Shown here: positions 5,918-23,711 of the stretch, one piece after another | How positions within the stretch are numbered: the first letter of the stretch is position 1 | How the letters are laid out: the number at the start of each line of letters is the position of its first letter | IMG/VR virus record: IMGVR_UViG_3300044825_003179 | Location: 1 to 23,790 of that record | Source of the DNA: a virus | Reading direction: 5' to 3' (one strand) | Length of the DNA: 23,790 nt | The notes under the pieces: generated by a model | Database searches by the model: none | Seen by the model: the letters and a program-made list of their open reading frames with translations, nothing else | What the model was told of the DNA's origin: nothing | Made by a program: the position numbers and the translations under genes

Positions 5918-6135
5918 TTGGGCATGGACACCGCCTGCCCGACATCCTGGACTACACGTTGGCACAGGTGCAGGCCTTCATCGAGGCGACGGCTCGTGTT
6001 GACGCCGAGCAGGATGCCCGGCTGCTGTCGCTGATCGCGATCGGCACGCGCGGCGATGGCCGCCAGCTCGACAAGACCCTCGACCGACTCACCGAACAGG
6101 TCCAAGACCATGCGCATCTCCGTCCGCATCGATAG
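5818..6135 (+). CDS. gpGT-like -1 frameshift extension of the tail chaperone
   Basis: This frame is open from the slippery site to TAG 6133-6135 and encodes 105 residues. Fused to the first 101 residues of the zero-frame gene, it gives a 206-residue product (join 5516..5818, 5818..6135). After a low-complexity junction the extension reads GWIDAVQRLIGHGHRLPDIL and then DYTLAQVQAFIEATA, a conserved-looking helical domain as in lambda T. It has no credible start codon of its own: no ATG lies in frame before the domain. This is the expected design for a frameshift-only domain. The T domain is known in lambda to bind the tail tube protein while the G part binds the tape measure. The 3' end overlaps the next gene by 26 bases. 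Confidence 0.8.
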   Translation, partial: YADGAAEIRRPVRDAHAAAGRERGGWIDAVQRLIGHGHRLPDILDYTLAQVQAFIEATARVDAEQDARLLSLIAIGTRGDGRQLDKTLDRLTEQVQDHAHLRPHR

Positions 6136-6754
6136 CGCTGCCGCCCAGGCTCAACTGCGCCGCTGGGGCGGTGAGTTCCGGGCCTCGGTCCAGAAGGCTG
6201 TCGCCCAGGCGATCGCCAGCGAGGCGACGGAATTGCGGCAGGATGTTCGCAGCCATGTCGCGGGTCAGATGAAGGTGGTCAGGAAGTCCTTCGTGAAGAG
6301 CTTCAGCGCCAAGGTGCTGGACAAGGACCCGAAGCGCTTGCCAGCGCTCTACGTTGGCTCTCGCATCCCATGGTCGGGCACGCACGAGCGCGGCGGCGTG
6401 ATCGGGGGCCGGATGCTGATCCCGCTGCACGGTCGGGTGGGTCGCAAGCGCTTCAAGGCGCAAGTGGCCGATCTGATACGGGGCGGCAATGCCTACTTCA
6501 TCAAGAATGCCAAGGGCAACATCGTCCTGATGGCTGAAAACCTCCGCGAATACGACTACACGCTGGGAGGCTTCAAGCGCCGCTACCGCAAGGCCGCAGG
6601 CATCCAGCGGCTCAAGCGCGGCGCTGACATTCCCATCGCGGTACTGGTGCCCAAGGTGGTGCTCAAGAAACGGCTCGATGTCGAAGGTATGGTGGCGGGG
6701 CGCATTCCGCGACTGTCGATCTCGATCGAGCGCAGCCTGCAAAGCATACGGTGA
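6110..6754 (+). CDS. Phage virion morphogenesis/minor tail protein, DUF6441-like
   Basis: This 214-residue basic protein begins with a helical segment (AAAQAQLRRWGGEFRASVQK, then AVAQAIASEATELRQDVRSH). It continues with a β-rich core containing LYVGSRIPWSGTHERGGVIG and GRMLIPLHGRVGR, then IVLMAENLREYDYTLGGF. I recognise the GGxIGGRMLIPL pattern from the DUF6441 phage family. The N-terminal region also resembles lambda gpZ/HK97 gp10-type tail completion proteins. The ATG at 6110 has only a weak CAGGT upstream, and the gene overlaps the frameshift product by 26 bases, so coupling is likely. It lies between chaperone and tape measure genes. A tail assembly role is likely, but its exact function is not determined. 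Confidence 0.6.
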   Translation: MRISVRIDSAAAQAQLRRWGGEFRASVQKAVAQAIASEATELRQDVRSHVAGQMKVVRKSFVKSFSAKVLDKDPKRLPALYVGSRIPWSGTHERGGVIGGRMLIPLHGRVGRKRFKAQVADLIRGGNAYFIKNAKGNIVLMAENLREYDYTLGGFKRRYRKAAGIQRLKRGADIPIAVLVPKVVLKKRLDVEGMVAGRIPRLSISIERSLQSIR

Positions 6755-6756
6755 GT

Positions 6757-7236
6757 TCACGAACTCAGCGGCCAGACTTCCTTGCCGATGGACTTGAACT
6801 TGCTGACGCTGAGGGCCCCCCGTTCGTTTCTGGCACGAGACCCTGGGGCACGGAGTGCCGCTTCAACGGCTGATCGTTGTGCCTCGTAGACCGCCGTAGG
6901 CTGAAGGTTCTCGTCCAGCAGCACGAGCAGAACGGCGTCCCACTCTTTTTCGAGATCAATTTTGCCAATACGTTGACCAGGGTTGTTCGTGGTGATGCAC
7001 CTGCCTTTGATCTGAAGCCGCTGTATGCCGTCCGCAGTCCTGCGAATGGCGTCGAAGCCGGCTTGCCTGACCATCGCCAACTCGAGATTAAGCAGTCGTA
7101 CGGCTTCGTACTCGGCCACTTCACCGGTGATGCCAATCGGGCGGCCAGTCAATTTCCTGTACCGAACGGCAATCTGGCGCGCTTCGTTGATGAGGTGGCT
7201 GATCTCAGCCATGTCGATGGGTTCCAGTTCTTTCAT
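6757..7236 (-). CDS. Reverse-strand cargo gene: DUF6998-like protein with PD-(D/E)xK-type residues
   Basis: This 159-residue protein is read opposite to the tail operon. I recognise the pattern YRKLTGRPIGITGEVAEYEA, RQAGFDAI and LQIKGR as the DUF6998 family. The conserved acidic and basic residues fit a PD-(D/E)xK/Mrr-like nuclease core: Glu39 and Glu42, Asp62, and Gln75-x-Lys77. The protein ends ARNERGALSVSKFKSIGK, also typical of the family. No membrane or signal segment is seen. The gene has only 2 bases to the convergent upstream gene and 28 to the divergent tape measure gene. Its base composition looks lower in GC than its neighbours. Nuclease function is inferred from motif spacing only; catalysis is not shown. 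A role in defence, exclusion or lysogenic conversion is speculation. Confidence 0.72.
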   Translation of the reverse strand: MKELEPIDMAEISHLINEARQIAVRYRKLTGRPIGITGEVAEYEAVRLLNLELAMVRQAGFDAIRRTADGIQRLQIKGRCITTNNPGQRIGKIDLEKEWDAVLLVLLDENLQPTAVYEAQRSAVEAALRAPGSRARNERGALSVSKFKSIGKEVWPLSS

Positions 7237-7264
7237 AGCTATGACATTGTGAGTGTTGGGTCAC

Positions 7265-10200
7265 ATGGCAACAAATCGAATCAGTGTCTTGGTGGCCCTC
7301 GACGCCGCCGACGAGGGCCTCAAGCGCGCTATTCAATCGGCTGAGAAATCCCTGGGCGAACTCTCGTCTACCGCCAAGACCGCAGGCGACAAGGCGGCTG
7401 CCGGCATGGCCGAGGTCAAGGCCGGCGTGTCGGCCTTCGGCGAGCAGGTCAACCGCGCCAAGACGCAGTTGCTCGCTTTCGTCTCGATCAACTGGGCGGT
7501 CGGCAAGGTGCAGGAGATCGTGCAGGTGGCCGACGCCTGGAACATGATGTCGGCGCGCCTCAAGCTCGCCACTGCCGGCCAGCGTGAGTACACGGTGGCG
7601 CAACAGGCGCTGTTCGACATCGCCCAGCGCATCGGGGTGCCGATCCAGGAAACCGCCACGCTCTACGGCAAGCTGCAGCAGGCAGTGCGAATGCTGGGGG
7701 GCGAGCAGCAGGACGCGCTGGCCATCACCGAGACCATCTCGCAGGCGCTGCGTCTGTCGGGCGCATCGGCTGCGGAGGCGCAGTCGTCTCTCTTGCAGTT
7801 CGGCCAGGCACTGGCCTCGGGCGTGCTGCGCGGCGAAGAGTTCAACTCCGTCGTCGAGAACAGCCCCCGCCTGGCGCAAGCCTTGGCCGATGGCCTGAAC
7901 GTGCCGATCGGGCGCCTGAGGAAGCTGGCCGAAGAAGGCCGTCTGACCGCCGACGTGGTCGTCAACGCGCTGCTGGGCCAGAAAGACAAGCTGGCAGCCG
8001 AGTATGCGCAGCTGCCGGCCACGGTCAGCCAGGCCTTCACCCGCCTGACGAATGCCTTTGGCCTGTGGGTCACCCGACTCGACGAGTCGACCGGCTTGAC
8101 CAAGAAGCTGGCTGAGGCGATGAGCTTCCTCGCGAACAATCTCGACACCGTGATGCAGTGGCTGCAGCGCATCGCTGGGGTCGGGCTCGCCGTGCTGGTC
8201 TACCGACTGATCCCAGCGATGATCACCGCCTGGCAGACGGCGGGCGCTGCGGCTGTCGCGGCAGCCAGCGCCACTTCGGCCGCCTGGGCCACAGCCAATC
8301 TGTCGATTTCGGCGGCGGTCACCAGCGTCGGCCTGCTCAAGACGACCTTCGCCATGCTCGGAGCCTTCCTGGTCGGCTGGGAGATCGGCACCTGGCTGTC
8401 GGAGAAGTTCGAGATTGTCCGCAAGGCCGGCATCTTCATGGTCGAGATGCTGGTCAAGGCCGTCGAACAACTGCAGTACCGCTGGGAAGCCTTCGCGGCC
8501 ATCTTCACCTCCGACACGATCGATCAAGCCACTCAGCGACACCAGCAGCGCCTAGTCGAGATGAACCAGATCTTCGGTCAGATGTACGCCGATGCTGGGC
8601 GTGGTGCAGAGGCAGCCAAGGGTGCGATGAACACCGCCGCCACGGCAGCCGAGGAGATCGCCAAGCGACTGGAGGCCGTGCGTCTGGGCACGCAGGAAGC
8701 GGTCGGGCGTGGTGTCGAGGCGGTCCACACCGCCCTGGAGAAACTCAAGTCCCGCCTGGGCGAGGTCGAGCAGGCCGTTGGCAAGGCGAACCAGACGGTC
8801 AACGACTCGACCGCCAAGATGGCTACAGCCTACCAAGGGATGACCACCCTCGTGGAGGCGAATCTGCAGCGGCAGGTCGACGCGGTCAAGGCACGCTTTC
8901 AGCAGGAACAGGCGGCGCTCGAACTCAAGACCCAATCCGAAACGGCGCTGATCACCAAGTCGACCCAGCTGCTGTCCGAGGCGCTGACGCAGCAGACCAC
9001 GCTGCGGCAGCAGGCCAGCACGGCGACTCTGAAGCTGGTCGACGCCGAGTCCACGGCACGGATCGAGGCTGCACGCCGGCAGGGCCAGAACGAAGCCGAG
9101 CGCTCGGCCAACGTCACCCGGGTCGAGAACGAGATCCTGGCGACCAAGCGCCAGACCTTGACGCAGGCACTGGCAGAGTACCGGCAGCATGTCGATGCCT
9201 TGAACGCCGAGGCCAACCGCCATCTGGTCGAGGTCCAGCGCATCGAGGGCGAGAAGCGCCAGTTGTCGATGACGACCGAGGAGCGCATCCGCGAGATCGC
9301 GCGCCAAGGGATGAGCGAGTTCCAGGCCAACGAGGACCGCAAGCGGCAGATCGCGGAACTGCAGCAGCAAGCCCGCCAGGCCCTGGCCAACGGTGAACTC
9401 GACCTGGCCCGGCAACTGGCCCAGAAGGCGATGGACCTGGCCGCGCAAGTCGCCACTGCCCAGACCAACGAGGCCAAGCGCGCCGAGGATGCCAAGAAGC
9501 AGTCCGAGCAGAACATGACCCAGGTCGTGCAGCTCGAAGCGCAGTCGCGCGAGGCTTATCGCAAGCAGGAGTACGCCAGCGCCGACCAGCTGATGCGCCA
9601 GGCCGAAGCCCTGCGGGCCGAGATCAGCCAGAAGTCGCAAGCATCCGATCAGGCTGCGCTGCAGAGCAAGGGCCAAGTGGCGCAGGCCATTGGATCGATC
9701 CGGACTTCGGAGGACCTGCTCAATCAGGCGCTGGACGCCGAGGCCAAAGCGCACCGCACGGCCGCCCAGTCGGCGATCAGCGCACGCGACGACATCCAGC
9801 GAACGCTCTCGCAGACCCAGGGGCAGATCGATGAGATCGCGGCCAAGCTTGCCCAAGGGCTCAAAGTCACGCTGGACGCAGACGCCAGTCGCTTCCAGCA
9901 GGCGATTGCGGAGCTCGACAAGGCCATGGCCGAGAAGGCCTACCTGGTCCAGATCCAGGCCGACTTGCAGCAGGCCGAGCAAAAGCTCAAGGAGTACGAG
10001 CAGCTACTCAAAGACGGCAAGACGCTGCCAGTGGACGCCGACGTCAGCCAGGCCAAGGCGGCCCTGGACAAGCTCAAGGCCTACGCCGACCAGCAATCCC
10101 AGCTAGAACTGAAGGTCGCGACCGAAAAGGCCCAGGCCTCGATCACCAACGTCGCGGGCATGATCCGCGCGCTCGACCGCATCCAGACCGAATCGCGCCA

Positions 10201-11275
10201 CACCGTCAGCAGCAATGCTGACGCCGTGCGGGCTGAGATTGCGAGTCTCAACGGCGCCAACACCTCCAGCACGCACACCATCTACGTGCGGCGGGTCGAA
10301 GCGAATGCGGCAGGCGGACTGGTCGGGGCCGGGATCCGTCGCTTTGCCACCGGTGGCGCCGTGGGCTCACCGCTGGCAGCGGCCTTTGCGCCGATGCGCG
10401 GCGGACGCGTGCCGGGCACGGGCAACCAGGACACGGTGCCGCGCACGCTGCAGGCGGGGGCCTTCGTGCTGCGCAAGGCGGCGGTACAAAAGTACGGTGG
10501 CTCCATGCTGGCTCAGTTGGCCGGCGGTGTGGCGCGCTTCGCGACGGGCGGCCGGGTCGGCAACTTCGTCATGCCGGTCCCGAAGCAGAACCGCGACGCG
10601 GCCGAAGCGCTCAAGATGATTGAGCTCGGCATGTCGGGCATGGATCAGTACACGAACTGGTTGCAGCACCAGTACGGTGCCTCGATCAGCCTGGACACGC
10701 GCCGCACGACGCTGGAGTACTGGGGTCAGATGGCGCAGGCCGACCGGCGCGCGCTCGAATCCTTCATCGGGGTCAAGCAACTGACCACAAATGAACGACA
10801 GACGGTCGATCGCATCCGCAACACCTGGCGCGAGGCGATGGCCCAGCCCCTGATCTGGGGCAAGGACCTCGAGCGCGATCTGATCGACTACATGGAGCAG
10901 CACCAGGGCGAGTTCTTCCGCGCTGGCGGCCTGGCCCGCTCCGACACGGTGCCCGCCATGCTGACGCCGGGTGAGTACGTGGTCAACCGCGAGGCGGTGG
11001 CGCGCTTTGGCTCGGGCTTCTTCGATGCGCTCAACCGGCTGGCCTTGCCGGCTCAAGCGGTGGCGCAGCGGGTGCAGGGCTTTGCCAGCGGCGGCCTGGT
11101 CCAGCCGAGTCGGTCACTGCTGACCCGGCCAGATCTGCCGGCTGACAGCAGTCCGGTGCGCACGGTCCGGGTCGAACTGGCGGCGGGCGACCGCAAGGTC
11201 AGTGCCTCGATCGCCGAGCGTGACGAGGCCAGCCTGCTGCAACTGCTGCAAGTCGCCCGTGCGCGGGCAGTTTGA
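7265..11275 (+). CDS. Tail tape measure protein
   Basis: Sets tail length and is ejected through the tail during DNA delivery; 1336 residues. The N-terminal tape measure domain (about residues 70-265) shows the family signature: LYGKLQQAVRMLGGEQ, ALRLSGASAAEAQSSLLQFG, then GVLRGEEFNSVVENSPRLAQ. A hydrophobic region with several possible membrane-spanning helices covers about 297-375. Then come about 550 residues of Gln/Ala/Glu-rich coiled coil (about 430-990). The C-terminus carries two copies of a GG...DTVP...L..G.(Y/F)V(L/V) unit (about 1026-1070 and 1217-1245) and an FASGGLV end, as in many tape measure proteins. The ATG at 7265 is preferred over an in-frame GTG at 7253; neither has a strong ribosome binding site. 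The divergent cargo gene upstream may have replaced the normal one. Confidence 0.95.
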   Translation: MATNRISVLVALDAADEGLKRAIQSAEKSLGELSSTAKTAGDKAAAGMAEVKAGVSAFGEQVNRAKTQLLAFVSINWAVGKVQEIVQVADAWNMMSARLKLATAGQREYTVAQQALFDIAQRIGVPIQETATLYGKLQQAVRMLGGEQQDALAITETISQALRLSGASAAEAQSSLLQFGQALASGVLRGEEFNSVVENSPRLAQALADGLNVPIGRLRKLAEEGRLTADVVVNALLGQKDKLAAEYAQLPATVSQAFTRLTNAFGLWVTRLDESTGLTKKLAEAMSFLANNLDTVMQWLQRIAGVGLAVLVYRLIPAMITAWQTAGAAAVAAASATSAAWATANLSISAAVTSVGLLKTTFAMLGAFLVGWEIGTWLSEKFEIVRKAGIFMVEMLVKAVEQLQYRWEAFAAIFTSDTIDQATQRHQQRLVEMNQIFGQMYADAGRGAEAAKGAMNTAATAAEEIAKRLEAVRLGTQEAVGRGVEAVHTALEKLKSRLGEVEQAVGKANQTVNDSTAKMATAYQGMTTLVEANLQRQVDAVKARFQQEQAALELKTQSETALITKSTQLLSEALTQQTTLRQQASTATLKLVDAESTARIEAARRQGQNEAERSANVTRVENEILATKRQTLTQALAEYRQHVDALNAEANRHLVEVQRIEGEKRQLSMTTEERIREIARQGMSEFQANEDRKRQIAELQQQARQALANGELDLARQLAQKAMDLAAQVATAQTNEAKRAEDAKKQSEQNMTQVVQLEAQSREAYRKQEYASADQLMRQAEALRAEISQKSQASDQAALQSKGQVAQAIGSIRTSEDLLNQALDAEAKAHRTAAQSAISARDDIQRTLSQTQGQIDEIAAKLAQGLKVTLDADASRFQQAIAELDKAMAEKAYLVQIQADLQQAEQKLKEYEQLLKDGKTLPVDADVSQAKAALDKLKAYADQQSQLELKVATEKAQASITNVAGMIRALDRIQTESRHTVSSNADAVRAEIASLNGANTSSTHTIYVRRVEANAAGGLVGAGIRRFATGGAVGSPLAAAFAPMRGGRVPGTGNQDTVPRTLQAGAFVLRKAAVQKYGGSMLAQLAGGVARFATGGRVGNFVMPVPKQNRDAAEALKMIELGMSGMDQYTNWLQHQYGASISLDTRRTTLEYWGQMAQADRRALESFIGVKQLTTNERQTVDRIRNTWREAMAQPLIWGKDLERDLIDYMEQHQGEFFRAGGLARSDTVPAMLTPGEYVVNREAVARFGSGFFDALNRLALPAQAVAQRVQGFASGGLVQPSRSLLTRPDLPADSSPVRTVRVELAAGDRKVSASIAERDEASLLQLLQVARARAV

Positions 11276-11696: not shown

Positions 11697-12110
11697 TCAG
11701 GTCAGGTCCATGAACGGGTTGTGGGCGACTTCCCACAAGAAGCCGTCCGGGTCGGCGAAATATCCCGAGTAGCCGCCCCAGAACACTTTCTGCCCGGGCT
11801 TTTGCAGCGTGGCGCCCGCAGCGACGGCTTCGGCCAGCACGGCATCGACATCCTCAGGTGAAGCGACGTTGTGCGCCAGGGTGAATCCCGGAAACCCCGA
11901 TCCCGTGCTGTCGGGGGTGGCGTTGGCATGGGCGTCCTCGGCCAGTTTCTCGCGGGGAAACAGCGCCAGGACCAGGCCGTTGGCCGTGTCCAGGAAGGCG
12001 ATGTCTTCGGTGCTTTCCTGCCTCACCGCAAAACCCAAGCGCTCGTAAAAGGCGCGTGACCTCGGCAAATCGCCAACCCCCAGCGTGATGAGACTGATGC
12101 GCGGTTTCAT
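11697..12110 (-). CDS. VOC-family (glyoxalase/bleomycin-resistance fold) protein, cargo gene
   Basis: This 137-residue protein has two βαβββ units of the vicinal oxygen chelate fold. The N-terminal unit is ISLITLGVGDLPRSRAFYER with LGFAV. The C-terminal unit is EDVDAVLAEAVAAGATL followed by GYSGYFADPDGFLWEVAHNP. The closing W-E-V-A-H-N-P is the hallmark of PF00903-type proteins, and its Glu is usually a metal ligand. It is cytosolic, with no signal sequence. Substrates in this superfamily vary widely (lactoylglutathione lyase, antibiotic binding, ring-cleaving dioxygenases), so none can be assigned. The gene is reversed between two tail genes, 4 bases from the convergent neighbour, so it is cargo rather than a tail component. 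A poly-G run precedes its start. GC content looks similar to the neighbours. Confidence 0.88.
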   Translation of the reverse strand: MKPRISLITLGVGDLPRSRAFYERLGFAVRQESTEDIAFLDTANGLVLALFPREKLAEDAHANATPDSTGSGFPGFTLAHNVASPEDVDAVLAEAVAAGATLQKPGQKVFWGGYSGYFADPDGFLWEVAHNPFMDLT

Positions 12111-22720: not shown

Positions 22721-23671
22721 TCAAGGCTGCTGAATTGCCCGACGCAGCGACGCAGAGATATCCCAGACGTTTGACTGGCCGCCCATGTATCTGGAAACCT
22801 TGATGTGATTGTTTGCTTCCAGCAGGTTCAGCACGAAGTCGACGAAGGCGCGGGGTTTGTCGACACGCGTCGCCAATTCCTCGTTAATGCGGACGTTCTC
22901 ATTGACCAGCAGCGCGGCGATCCGGGCCACTACGTCCTGATAGCCCTCGACATACGCTTCTGCGAACTGCTGAAAACCGTAGTCCGTCAGCACGACATGC
23001 GACAGCGGTGCTCCGAGAACCCGCCCGATTTTGATGTAGTAGTGCTGTTCGAGAATTTCCAGCGAGTCGAGAAGCTCCTGCTGCGGCACATCTTGGAGCG
23101 CCGGTTCGGCGCGCAGCCGATCCCAGTCCACAAGACCTGCATCGTCGTCGATTTGCATCTGGGCAATTACACGCAAGGCTAAGTCATCAACCCGCGTCAA
23201 GCCGGAGATCAATGGCGCTGGCCCGGAGAATCTGGCAGGCGGTTGGCCGATAGTGGGCTTATCGTCTGTGTCGAAGATCGCCGACAGGATACGCTGCAAG
23301 CTCTGGCTGTAGTCGGTGAGGTCATCGACCCGCTGCCAGAGGGTGGATCGCAGGCTTTCGGGCACGTCACAATCGTCAATGACCACAGGGATCAATCGGG
23401 TACCACGGCTGATCTTGTTGACCACCGAGGTATTTAGCTCTTCCCGAACCCAAGGCTTCTGAACACTGATCTTGGACAAGACGATGATGACGGCCCGTGC
23501 CTCCTTTAGTCCTTCTTCGAAGATCCTGTCCACCAAACTATCACCCGGCTTCATCTCCCATTGATCGAGCCAAGCGTCTACGCCGTTCTCACGTAAGCGC
23601 CTCGCGAAGTCAACCACAAAGCGTGTTTTGTCTTCACTGGCATGGCTCAAAAAAACTTTTGGTGGACTCAT
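22721..23671 (-). CDS. TIR-domain protein with tandem winged-helix-like C-terminal region (predicted NADase defence effector)
   Basis: This 316-residue protein (from ATG 23671) is convergent with the endolysin. Residues 4-110 form a TIR domain of the TIR_2 type: KVFLSHASEDK, VDAWLDQWEMKPGDSL, AVIIVLSKISVQ, PWVREEL and RLIPVVIDD. The WxxxE motif (Trp74-Glu78) places the catalytic Glu of NAD-cleaving TIR enzymes at Glu78. After a Pro-rich linker (about 140-160) the C-terminal half looks like two winged helices (about 165-240 and 245-310), a possible sensing or DNA/RNA-binding part. Bacterial TIR proteins commonly kill infected cells by depleting NAD+. A similar role here is inferred. The gene looks lower in GC than the phage genes. 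Longer in-frame starts at 23695 and 23707 lie inside the adjacent IS end, and AAGGGG precedes 23671, so this start is preferred. Confidence 0.85.
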   Translation of the reverse strand: MSPPKVFLSHASEDKTRFVVDFARRLRENGVDAWLDQWEMKPGDSLVDRIFEEGLKEARAVIIVLSKISVQKPWVREELNTSVVNKISRGTRLIPVVIDDCDVPESLRSTLWQRVDDLTDYSQSLQRILSAIFDTDDKPTIGQPPARFSGPAPLISGLTRVDDLALRVIAQMQIDDDAGLVDWDRLRAEPALQDVPQQELLDSLEILEQHYYIKIGRVLGAPLSHVVLTDYGFQQFAEAYVEGYQDVVARIAALLVNENVRINEELATRVDKPRAFVDFVLNLLEANNHIKVSRYMGGQSNVWDISASLRRAIQQP

Positions 23672-23692
23672 GCTAGCGAAGCCCCTTAAATC

Positions 23693-23711
23693 CATCCCGT
23701 TATACACATCT
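23693..23711 (+). repeat. Left terminal inverted repeat of an IS50/Tn5-like element
   Basis: The 19 bases end in TTATACACATCT (23700-23711), identical to positions 8-19 of the Tn5 mosaic end, and 14 of 19 positions match overall. TTATACACA within it fits the DnaA-box form TTATNCACA, as in the outside end of IS50. The orientation points inward toward the transposase start at 23749. The outermost boundary is uncertain by a few bases. Confidence 0.65.
23699..23704 (-). promoter_or_regulatory. Possible -10 hexamer for the TIR gene, inside the IS end
   Basis: Read on the minus strand this is TATAAC, a 5/6 match to TATAAT. It sits about 28 bases before the preferred TIR start, so transcripts would begin around 23692 and carry the AAGGGG ribosome site. 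No good -35 was found at 17 bases. An ATGACA lies too far upstream, at a 23-base spacing. Weak evidence. Confidence 0.3.

What the first reader, a model, noticed from the sequence alone, without database searches (positions are those of the whole stretch)
6757..7236. Reverse-strand nuclease-like (DUF6998) gene inserted in the tail operon
The gene is read against the operon, sits 2 bases from one tail gene and 28 from the tape measure gene, and looks lower in GC. Its Glu39/Glu42, Asp62 and Gln75-x-Lys77 spacing fits a PD-(D/E)xK/Mrr-like core. A self-contained nuclease-like cargo gene expressed from the lysogen could be an exclusion or anti-mobile-element factor. The family has no established function that I know of.
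Basis: partly seen in the sequence, partly recalled or inferred. Interest (0 to 1): 0.62.

Follow-up and report, generated by a model that had tools for sequence, protein, structure and literature searches.

The report
Prophage-borne enzyme cutting methylated DNA
A gene sitting backwards among the tail genes of a bacterial virus encodes a close relative of known enzymes that cut only cytosine-methylated DNA, and its position is a recurring slot where related viruses keep other defence or toxin genes, so it probably helps an infected cell destroy rival DNA.

Summary
In detail: window 6757-7236 (-) is a 159-aa gene, opposite to the late operon, 2 nt from the DUF6441 gene and 28 nt from the tape-measure ATG, with lower GC. 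The nuclease reading is right, but "no established function" is not. The protein is 50% identical to Pam7902I, a purified 5-methylcytosine-dependent restriction enzyme of the Esp638I branch of the BisI family. All six residues mutated in Pam7902I align with identical residues (E42, D62, Q75, K77, D100, D108). The predicted fold (pLDDT 93.6) matches NhoI and Eco15I best, then PvuII.

The context is the newer part. In related prophages the DUF6441|tape-measure junction is normally closed, but 16 of 114 distinct junctions hold inserts. Their assigned cargo is always on the reverse strand: BisI-type enzyme, PD-T4-3-like GIY-YIG nuclease, RiboL-PSP HEPN protein, and Phd+PIN, Phd+ParE and ParD+ParE modules, sometimes stacked. 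In the 80 nearest relatives, ten other head-tail junctions had no insert (0 of 652) against 4 of 78 here.

Most likely it is a lysogen-expressed enzyme cutting incoming 5mC-bearing DNA. Expression, activity and exclusion are untested. The gene is a new member of a known family; the antisense cargo slot is the more interesting part.

The parts
6757..7236 (-). BisI-family (Esp638I/Pam7902I branch) 5-methylcytosine-dependent endonuclease gene, 159 aa; catalytic residues E42, D62, Q75, K77 plus D100, D108
6755..7264 (.). insert occupying the DUF6441|tape-measure junction; closed in most relatives
6056..6754 (+). DUF6441 tail-region gene, left flank of the cargo slot (the start may lie further in; a 6107 start was also used)
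7265..11275 (+). tape measure protein gene (TMP_3), right flank of the cargo slot; any promoter of the nuclease gene must lie in the 28-base gap or inside this gene's 5' end

Best explanation
The gene encodes a small, solitary (no partner methyltransferase seen) Type IIM/IV restriction endonuclease of the Esp638I/Pam7902I branch of the BisI family. By analogy with Pam7902I, a PD-(D/E)xK dimer reads several 5-methylcytosines (or 5hmC) in a GCSSGC-like site (relaxed RYSSRY) and cuts within it. It is carried as a backwards cargo gene (moron) in a slot between the DUF6441 and tape-measure genes of a prophage family. Most likely it is made in the lysogen, where unmodified host and prophage DNA is safe, and cuts incoming phage or plasmid DNA bearing dense cytosine methylation, excluding rivals. 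After induction, late transcription runs antisense through it and may switch it off. Shown by computation: homology, catalytic residues, fold, cargo slot, strand bias. Inferred: activity, site, expression, target, exclusion, silencing.
For: Pam7902I (WP_054068722, found as hit H8 on its own strain's plasmid; characterised in PMC8281217) aligns at 73/147 = 50% identity. PADLOC mREase_II model E=3.6e-44. Residues whose alanine mutants were dead in Pam7902I (E39, D59, K74, D98, D106; Q72A partly active) map to E42, D62, K77, D100, D108, Q75 and are kept in 75, 75, 75, 75, 70 and 76 of 76 rows. AlphaFold2 pLDDT 93.6, pTM 0.88; Foldseek best hits are NhoI then Eco15I, then PvuII; VIA-align Z 13.2 NhoI, 11.7 Eco15I, 10.3 PvuII. 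Profile search: Eco15I E=9.4e-9, NhoI 1.1e-6. No methyltransferase family among the 25 window proteins scanned. Same gene at the same junction, reversed, in two other genomes (L019, L021). 16 of 114 distinct junctions occupied, assigned cargo reversed in all 16; the cargo families are nuclease, HEPN or toxin-antitoxin.
Against: No sigma-70-like promoter upstream at the scan's threshold; the best pair is TTGTTG-17-CACAAT, 7 of 12, tied with others. The C-terminal methyl-sensing motif of BisI enzymes could not be aligned. The Ramlibacter copy at the same site is split across two frames near residue 128, so the gene may be dispensable or decaying there, or the assembly in error. A defence-gene excess next to homologues was not shown: near and distal neighbours both hold scattered defence genes. 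The BisI family's natural target is stated to be unknown (PMC11347163 section 25).
Confidence: 0.72

Rival explanations
1. Retention or conflict cargo rather than anti-phage defence: like the toxin-antitoxin modules that share the slot, the enzyme mainly punishes entry of rival elements that bring a cytosine-5 methyltransferase (restriction-modification plasmids, other prophages), because newly methylated DNA becomes its substrate.
For: The slot's commonest cargo is toxin-antitoxin modules (10 of 16 occupied junctions); the enzyme needs only methylation of its site to act (PMC8281217); homologues sit on plasmids (27 records).
Against: GIY-YIG PD-T4-3-like and HEPN cargo point to phage defence; only 1 of 121 near neighbours of chromosomal homologues is a C5 methyltransferase.
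Confidence: 0.3
2. Inert passenger: a recently acquired gene without present function.
For: Low GC, two-frame copy in Ramlibacter, no clear promoter.
Against: Full-length with all catalytic residues kept although relatives differ at 30-50% of positions; found at the same slot in three phage genomes at about 67-72% protein identity, which suggests long-term retention.
Confidence: 0.15
3. A lytic-cycle nuclease of the phage, for host DNA breakdown or genome processing.
For: It lies inside the late region.
Against: Opposite strand to the late operon; absent at this site from most relatives (98 of 114 junctions closed); the nearest solved folds are modification-dependent and type II restriction enzymes, not processing nucleases.
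Confidence: 0.05

Closest known systems
Pam7902I / Esp638I (BisI-family m5C-dependent endonucleases; PMC8281217 and PMC4926085, passages and sections read)
   Same: 50% identity over 147 aa to Pam7902I; same D-x12-QxK site and the same further essential acidic residues; same length class and RNERG motif
   Different: Pam7902I is on a Pseudomonas plasmid; this copy is inside a prophage tail operon; its own activity and site are untested
NhoI and Eco15I (BisI-family crystal structures; PMC11347163, abstract and four sections read)
   Same: same PD-(D/E)xK fold, QxK variant, catalytic helix glutamate
   Different: about 20% identity; they read GCNGC; the C-terminal methyl-pocket motif could not be matched
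Prophage-encoded antiviral hotspots in P2/P4, Vibrionaceae and Bacillus prophages (PMC9122126, abstract, section 12 and passages read)
   Same: a fixed slot in a prophage with exchangeable defence cargo
   Different: the Vibrionaceae and Bacillus ones lie beside repressor/regulator and integrase-side genes; this slot is between two tail genes and its cargo is always reversed; no occurrence of tape measure or Burkholderia in that paper's main text
Tab moron of phage JBD26 (PMC10884400, passages read)
   Same: defence moron inside the late operon of a prophage
   Different: between terminase genes and acts on tail assembly, not a DNA nuclease

Membership tests
BisI family, Esp638I/Pam7902I branch | clear sequence homology to a biochemically proven member | tested here: met
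   50% over 147 aa to Pam7902I; mREase_II E=3.6e-44; the tree places window and Pam7902I in one 62-row group, SH-aLRT 87
BisI family, Esp638I/Pam7902I branch | catalytic E...D-x(10-12)-QxK | tested here: met
   E42, D62-x12-Q75-x-K77
BisI family, Esp638I/Pam7902I branch | PD-(D/E)xK fold as in NhoI/Eco15I | tested here: met
BisI family, Esp638I/Pam7902I branch | solitary enzyme without partner methyltransferase | tested here: met
   no methyltransferase family among 25 window proteins; the phage outside the 23.8 kb record is not seen
BisI family, Esp638I/Pam7902I branch | methyl-pocket motif (H/R)(V/I/T/M) near the C-terminus | tested here: inconclusive
   profile alignment ends before that region; R136 75/76 and R139 76/76 but not assigned a role
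BisI family, Esp638I/Pam7902I branch | cleaves only 5mC/5hmC DNA | not testable with these tools
   needs purified protein
Prophage defence/cargo hotspot | same conserved flanks, closed in most relatives, different cargo in others | tested here: met
   98 closed and 16 occupied of 114 distinct junctions, six cargo types
Prophage defence/cargo hotspot | cargo protects the lysogen | not testable with these tools
   needs plaque tests
PvuII-type endonucleases | closer to PvuII than to BisI enzymes | tested here: not met
   PvuII ranks after NhoI/Eco15I by Foldseek and below NhoI by VIA-align Z

The most novel reading that the evidence does not exclude
The DUF6441|tape-measure junction is a dedicated antisense cargo dock of a prophage family: defence and toxin genes are repeatedly gained, stacked and lost there, always backwards, so that they are expressed in the quiet prophage and shut off by late transcription when the phage itself replicates. 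The methyl-dependent nuclease is one of its payloads, giving a natural context in which the BisI family's unknown target can be tested.
Probability: 0.35. Interest if true: 0.65.

Novelty: new member of a known kind. Interest (0 to 1): 0.47.

Why it matters
What BisI-family enzymes protect against is stated to be an open question (PMC11347163, section 25). A copy held at a defined, exchangeable slot of a temperate phage, where sister phages hold phage-defence-like and toxin-antitoxin cargo, points to rivalry between mobile elements and can be tested with a deletion in a lysogen. It also suggests a function for proteins labelled DUF6998, and gives a simple place to look (DUF6441|tape measure, reverse strand) for further defence genes.

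Tried and rejected
Constant genomic partner of DUF6998: 121 near neighbours of 31 chromosomal homologues showed scattered families, one C5 methyltransferase, and defence families no more evidently than 111 distal ORFs of the same loci (only the first 25 of 90 and 123 PADLOC families were shown, and ORFs were called crudely, so this is weak). It neither shows nor excludes defence-island enrichment. 31 of the 80 genome loci were used: those with full flanks, after dropping 13 (near-copies and the two same-slot prophages). Of 124 near and 113 distal ORFs listed, 121 and 111 were scanned; 5 that stood in both lists or lay far out were dropped from one.

Phage records: no tblastn match of the nuclease or of DUF6441 in the INPHARED phages at 1e-5, so only IMG/VR and genome contigs informed the survey.

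Second cargo site: the reverse glyoxalase gene at 11697-12110 was tested as another slot; none of 60 relatives passing the end filters holds an insert over 200 bases there, and no glyoxalase match was found.

Reverse orientation of BisI genes in other phages is not a rule: it opposes the capsid gene in L003, L004, L005, L006 and L010 but agrees with the portal gene in L100, L105 and L110.

Cargo mechanism: insert edges lie close to the flanking stop and start codons; I saw no transposase or integrase among the assigned cargo, but made no systematic search for edge repeats. Literature: searches for DUF6998 and DUF6441 (0 papers each) and for prophage hotspots or morons with tape measure/tail terms listed no title or abstract that names this slot; only listings were seen, apart from the papers cited.

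Tree limits: one search is a quick tree with two very long distant rows (L205, L211) and 44 open branches; 5 junctions with short sequence were dropped before it. Counts of changes (11 for occupancy; at least 6 forced) do not separate gain from loss.

Full report
OBSERVATION. The ORF at 6757-7236 (-) is real, 159 aa, between the DUF6441 gene (stop at 6754) and the tape-measure gene (ATG 7265 by comparison with relatives), with GC 0.577 against 0.655 for the first 22.7 kb of the window. The window is a 23,790-base virus record. Pfam gives, over 25 window proteins, portal, S49 protease, decoration protein D, capsid E, DUF6441, TMP_3, lysozyme and others, and no methyltransferase.

WHAT IT IS. 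Pfam calls it DUF6998 (29 bits), but PADLOC's type II methyl-directed restriction enzyme model matches at 3.6e-44 and a single-sequence PDB search gives Eco15I at 5e-4. Among 27 plasmid records with a homologue is the P. amygdali YM7902 plasmid whose protein WP_054068722.1 is Pam7902I, purified and characterised in PMC8281217 (section 17 and passages of section 18). The two proteins share 73 of 147 aligned residues. Pam7902I cuts m5C DNA at GCS^SGC, relaxed RYS^SRY; E39A, D59A, K74A, D98A and D106A are dead and Q72A is partly active. These map to E42, D62, K77, D100, D108 and Q75 of the window protein; across 76 rows they are kept in 75, 75, 75, 75, 70 and 76. The model of the window protein is matched best by NhoI and Eco15I and then PvuII (Foldseek; VIA-align Z 13.2, 11.7 and 10.3), and PvuII is also the nearest canonical relative named for the BisI family in PMC11347163 (section 20). 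A profile of the 76 rows finds Eco15I (9.4e-9) and NhoI (1.1e-6) in the PDB by sequence. The C-terminal methyl-reading motif could not be aligned, so the exact site (GCSSGC) is inferred from Pam7902I only.

WHERE IT SITS. A survey of relatives used four viral scans, one search of 399 genomes of the order of the Ramlibacter genome (15 of 399 had DUF6441) and the two genome loci L019 and L021. Of 334 loci, 18 lacked one flank; the rest gave 114 distinct junctions, of which 16 hold more than 100 extra bases and 98 are closed (gap -93 to 91). Distinct means not identical in sequence, so near-copies count apart (L278/L288 and L348/L438 are such pairs). L019 entered through the nuclease search, so it is not an unbiased count; L207 (the same Ramlibacter locus as L021) was also found through DUF6441 alone. 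Cargo by Pfam, PADLOC and tblastn: BisI-type enzyme (L019, L207); PD-T4-3-like GIY-YIG nuclease (L163, L186, L222; PADLOC 8e-25 and 9e-23 for the first two, the third by similarity); RiboL-PSP HEPN (L276; Pfam 2e-28, no PADLOC match); Phd+PIN (L116, L169, L194, L348, L438); Phd+ParE (L278, L288, L317, L423); ParD+ParE (L338, and again in L317). Every assigned cargo gene lies on the strand opposite to the late operon. L317 stacks ParD+ParE, a lone Phd antitoxin and Phd+ParE; L348 and L438 carry a ParD-like remnant beside Phd+PIN. PMC10952713 (one passage read) lists the HEPN family PF18735 and GIY-YIG among domains of anti-phage systems, PD-T4-3 among the latter.

CONTROL. In the 80 nearest viral relatives, ten other head-tail junctions show no insert over 200 bases in 652 observations, against 4 of 78 for DUF6441|TMP (Fisher p 1.2e-4; related phages are not independent, so this is a guide only).

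TURNOVER. On a tree of DUF6441 plus tape-measure N-terminus (110 rows), occupancy needs at least 11 changes, 6 forced by well-supported branches; the three BisI-carrying rows need three label changes, two of them forced, and two prophages of one Ramlibacter genome are sisters (SH-aLRT 99) though one carries the nuclease and the other Phd+PIN. On the nuclease tree, window, L021, L019 and L020 group together (88), so the gene has probably moved among phages of this family; L020 lies next to recombinase genes instead. The Ramlibacter copy is split over two frames near residue 128.

HOW IT WORKS. Shown: family, catalytic site, fold, slot, strand bias. Inferred: (1) the gene is transcribed in the lysogen; no sigma-70-like site passed the scan and the best upstream pair is only 7 of 12, so this is the weakest step; (2) the dimer reads several 5mC or 5hmC in GCSSGC-like sites; (3) it cuts incoming DNA methylated by its own synthesis pathway or by a methyltransferase; (4) antisense late transcription shuts it off at induction. 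Self-DNA is spared as long as the host has no matching cytosine methylation; the window itself has 118 GCSSGC sites.

KNOWN OR NEW. The enzyme is a new member of a known kind. Prophage association of a BisI homologue is already noted for Bth171I and, as a mobile element, for Bce1273I (PMC4926085 section 16). Prophage defence hotspots are known (PMC9122126), none at this slot in the parts read. Papers: PMC8281217, PMC4926085, PMC11347163, PMC10884400, PMC10952713 and PMC9122126 were read in the named sections or passages; all others only as search listings.

Noticed in passing
window 22721-23707 (-): TIR-domain protein (TIR_2 E=3e-27; PADLOC bSEFIR 2e-23, PDC-S66 7e-23) after the lysozyme gene, low GC 0.558: a second likely defence gene at the record's right end.
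   Followed up: partly
window 11697-12110 (-): Glyoxalase/bleomycin-resistance-fold gene read against the operon between two tail genes; absent from that junction in the relatives examined.
   Followed up: partly
L194 and L207 (Ramlibacter aurantiacus genome, G001 contig 27): Two sister prophages in one genome carry different cargo at the same slot: a Phd+PIN module and the BisI-type gene.
   Followed up: yes
L317:3639-5523: Three toxin-antitoxin pieces stacked in one slot, all reversed: ParD+ParE, lone Phd, Phd+ParE.
   Followed up: partly
L018 (Sinorhizobium medicae plasmid): A BisI-family homologue next to UvrD-helicase and ATP-dependent endonuclease genes (Gabija-like arrangement, name recalled) and a toxin-antitoxin pair.
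   Followed up: no
L163:6685-7488 (-), L186, L222: 267-aa GIY-YIG protein related to PD-T4-3 with a long C-terminal part, at the tail slot of three prophages.
   Followed up: partly
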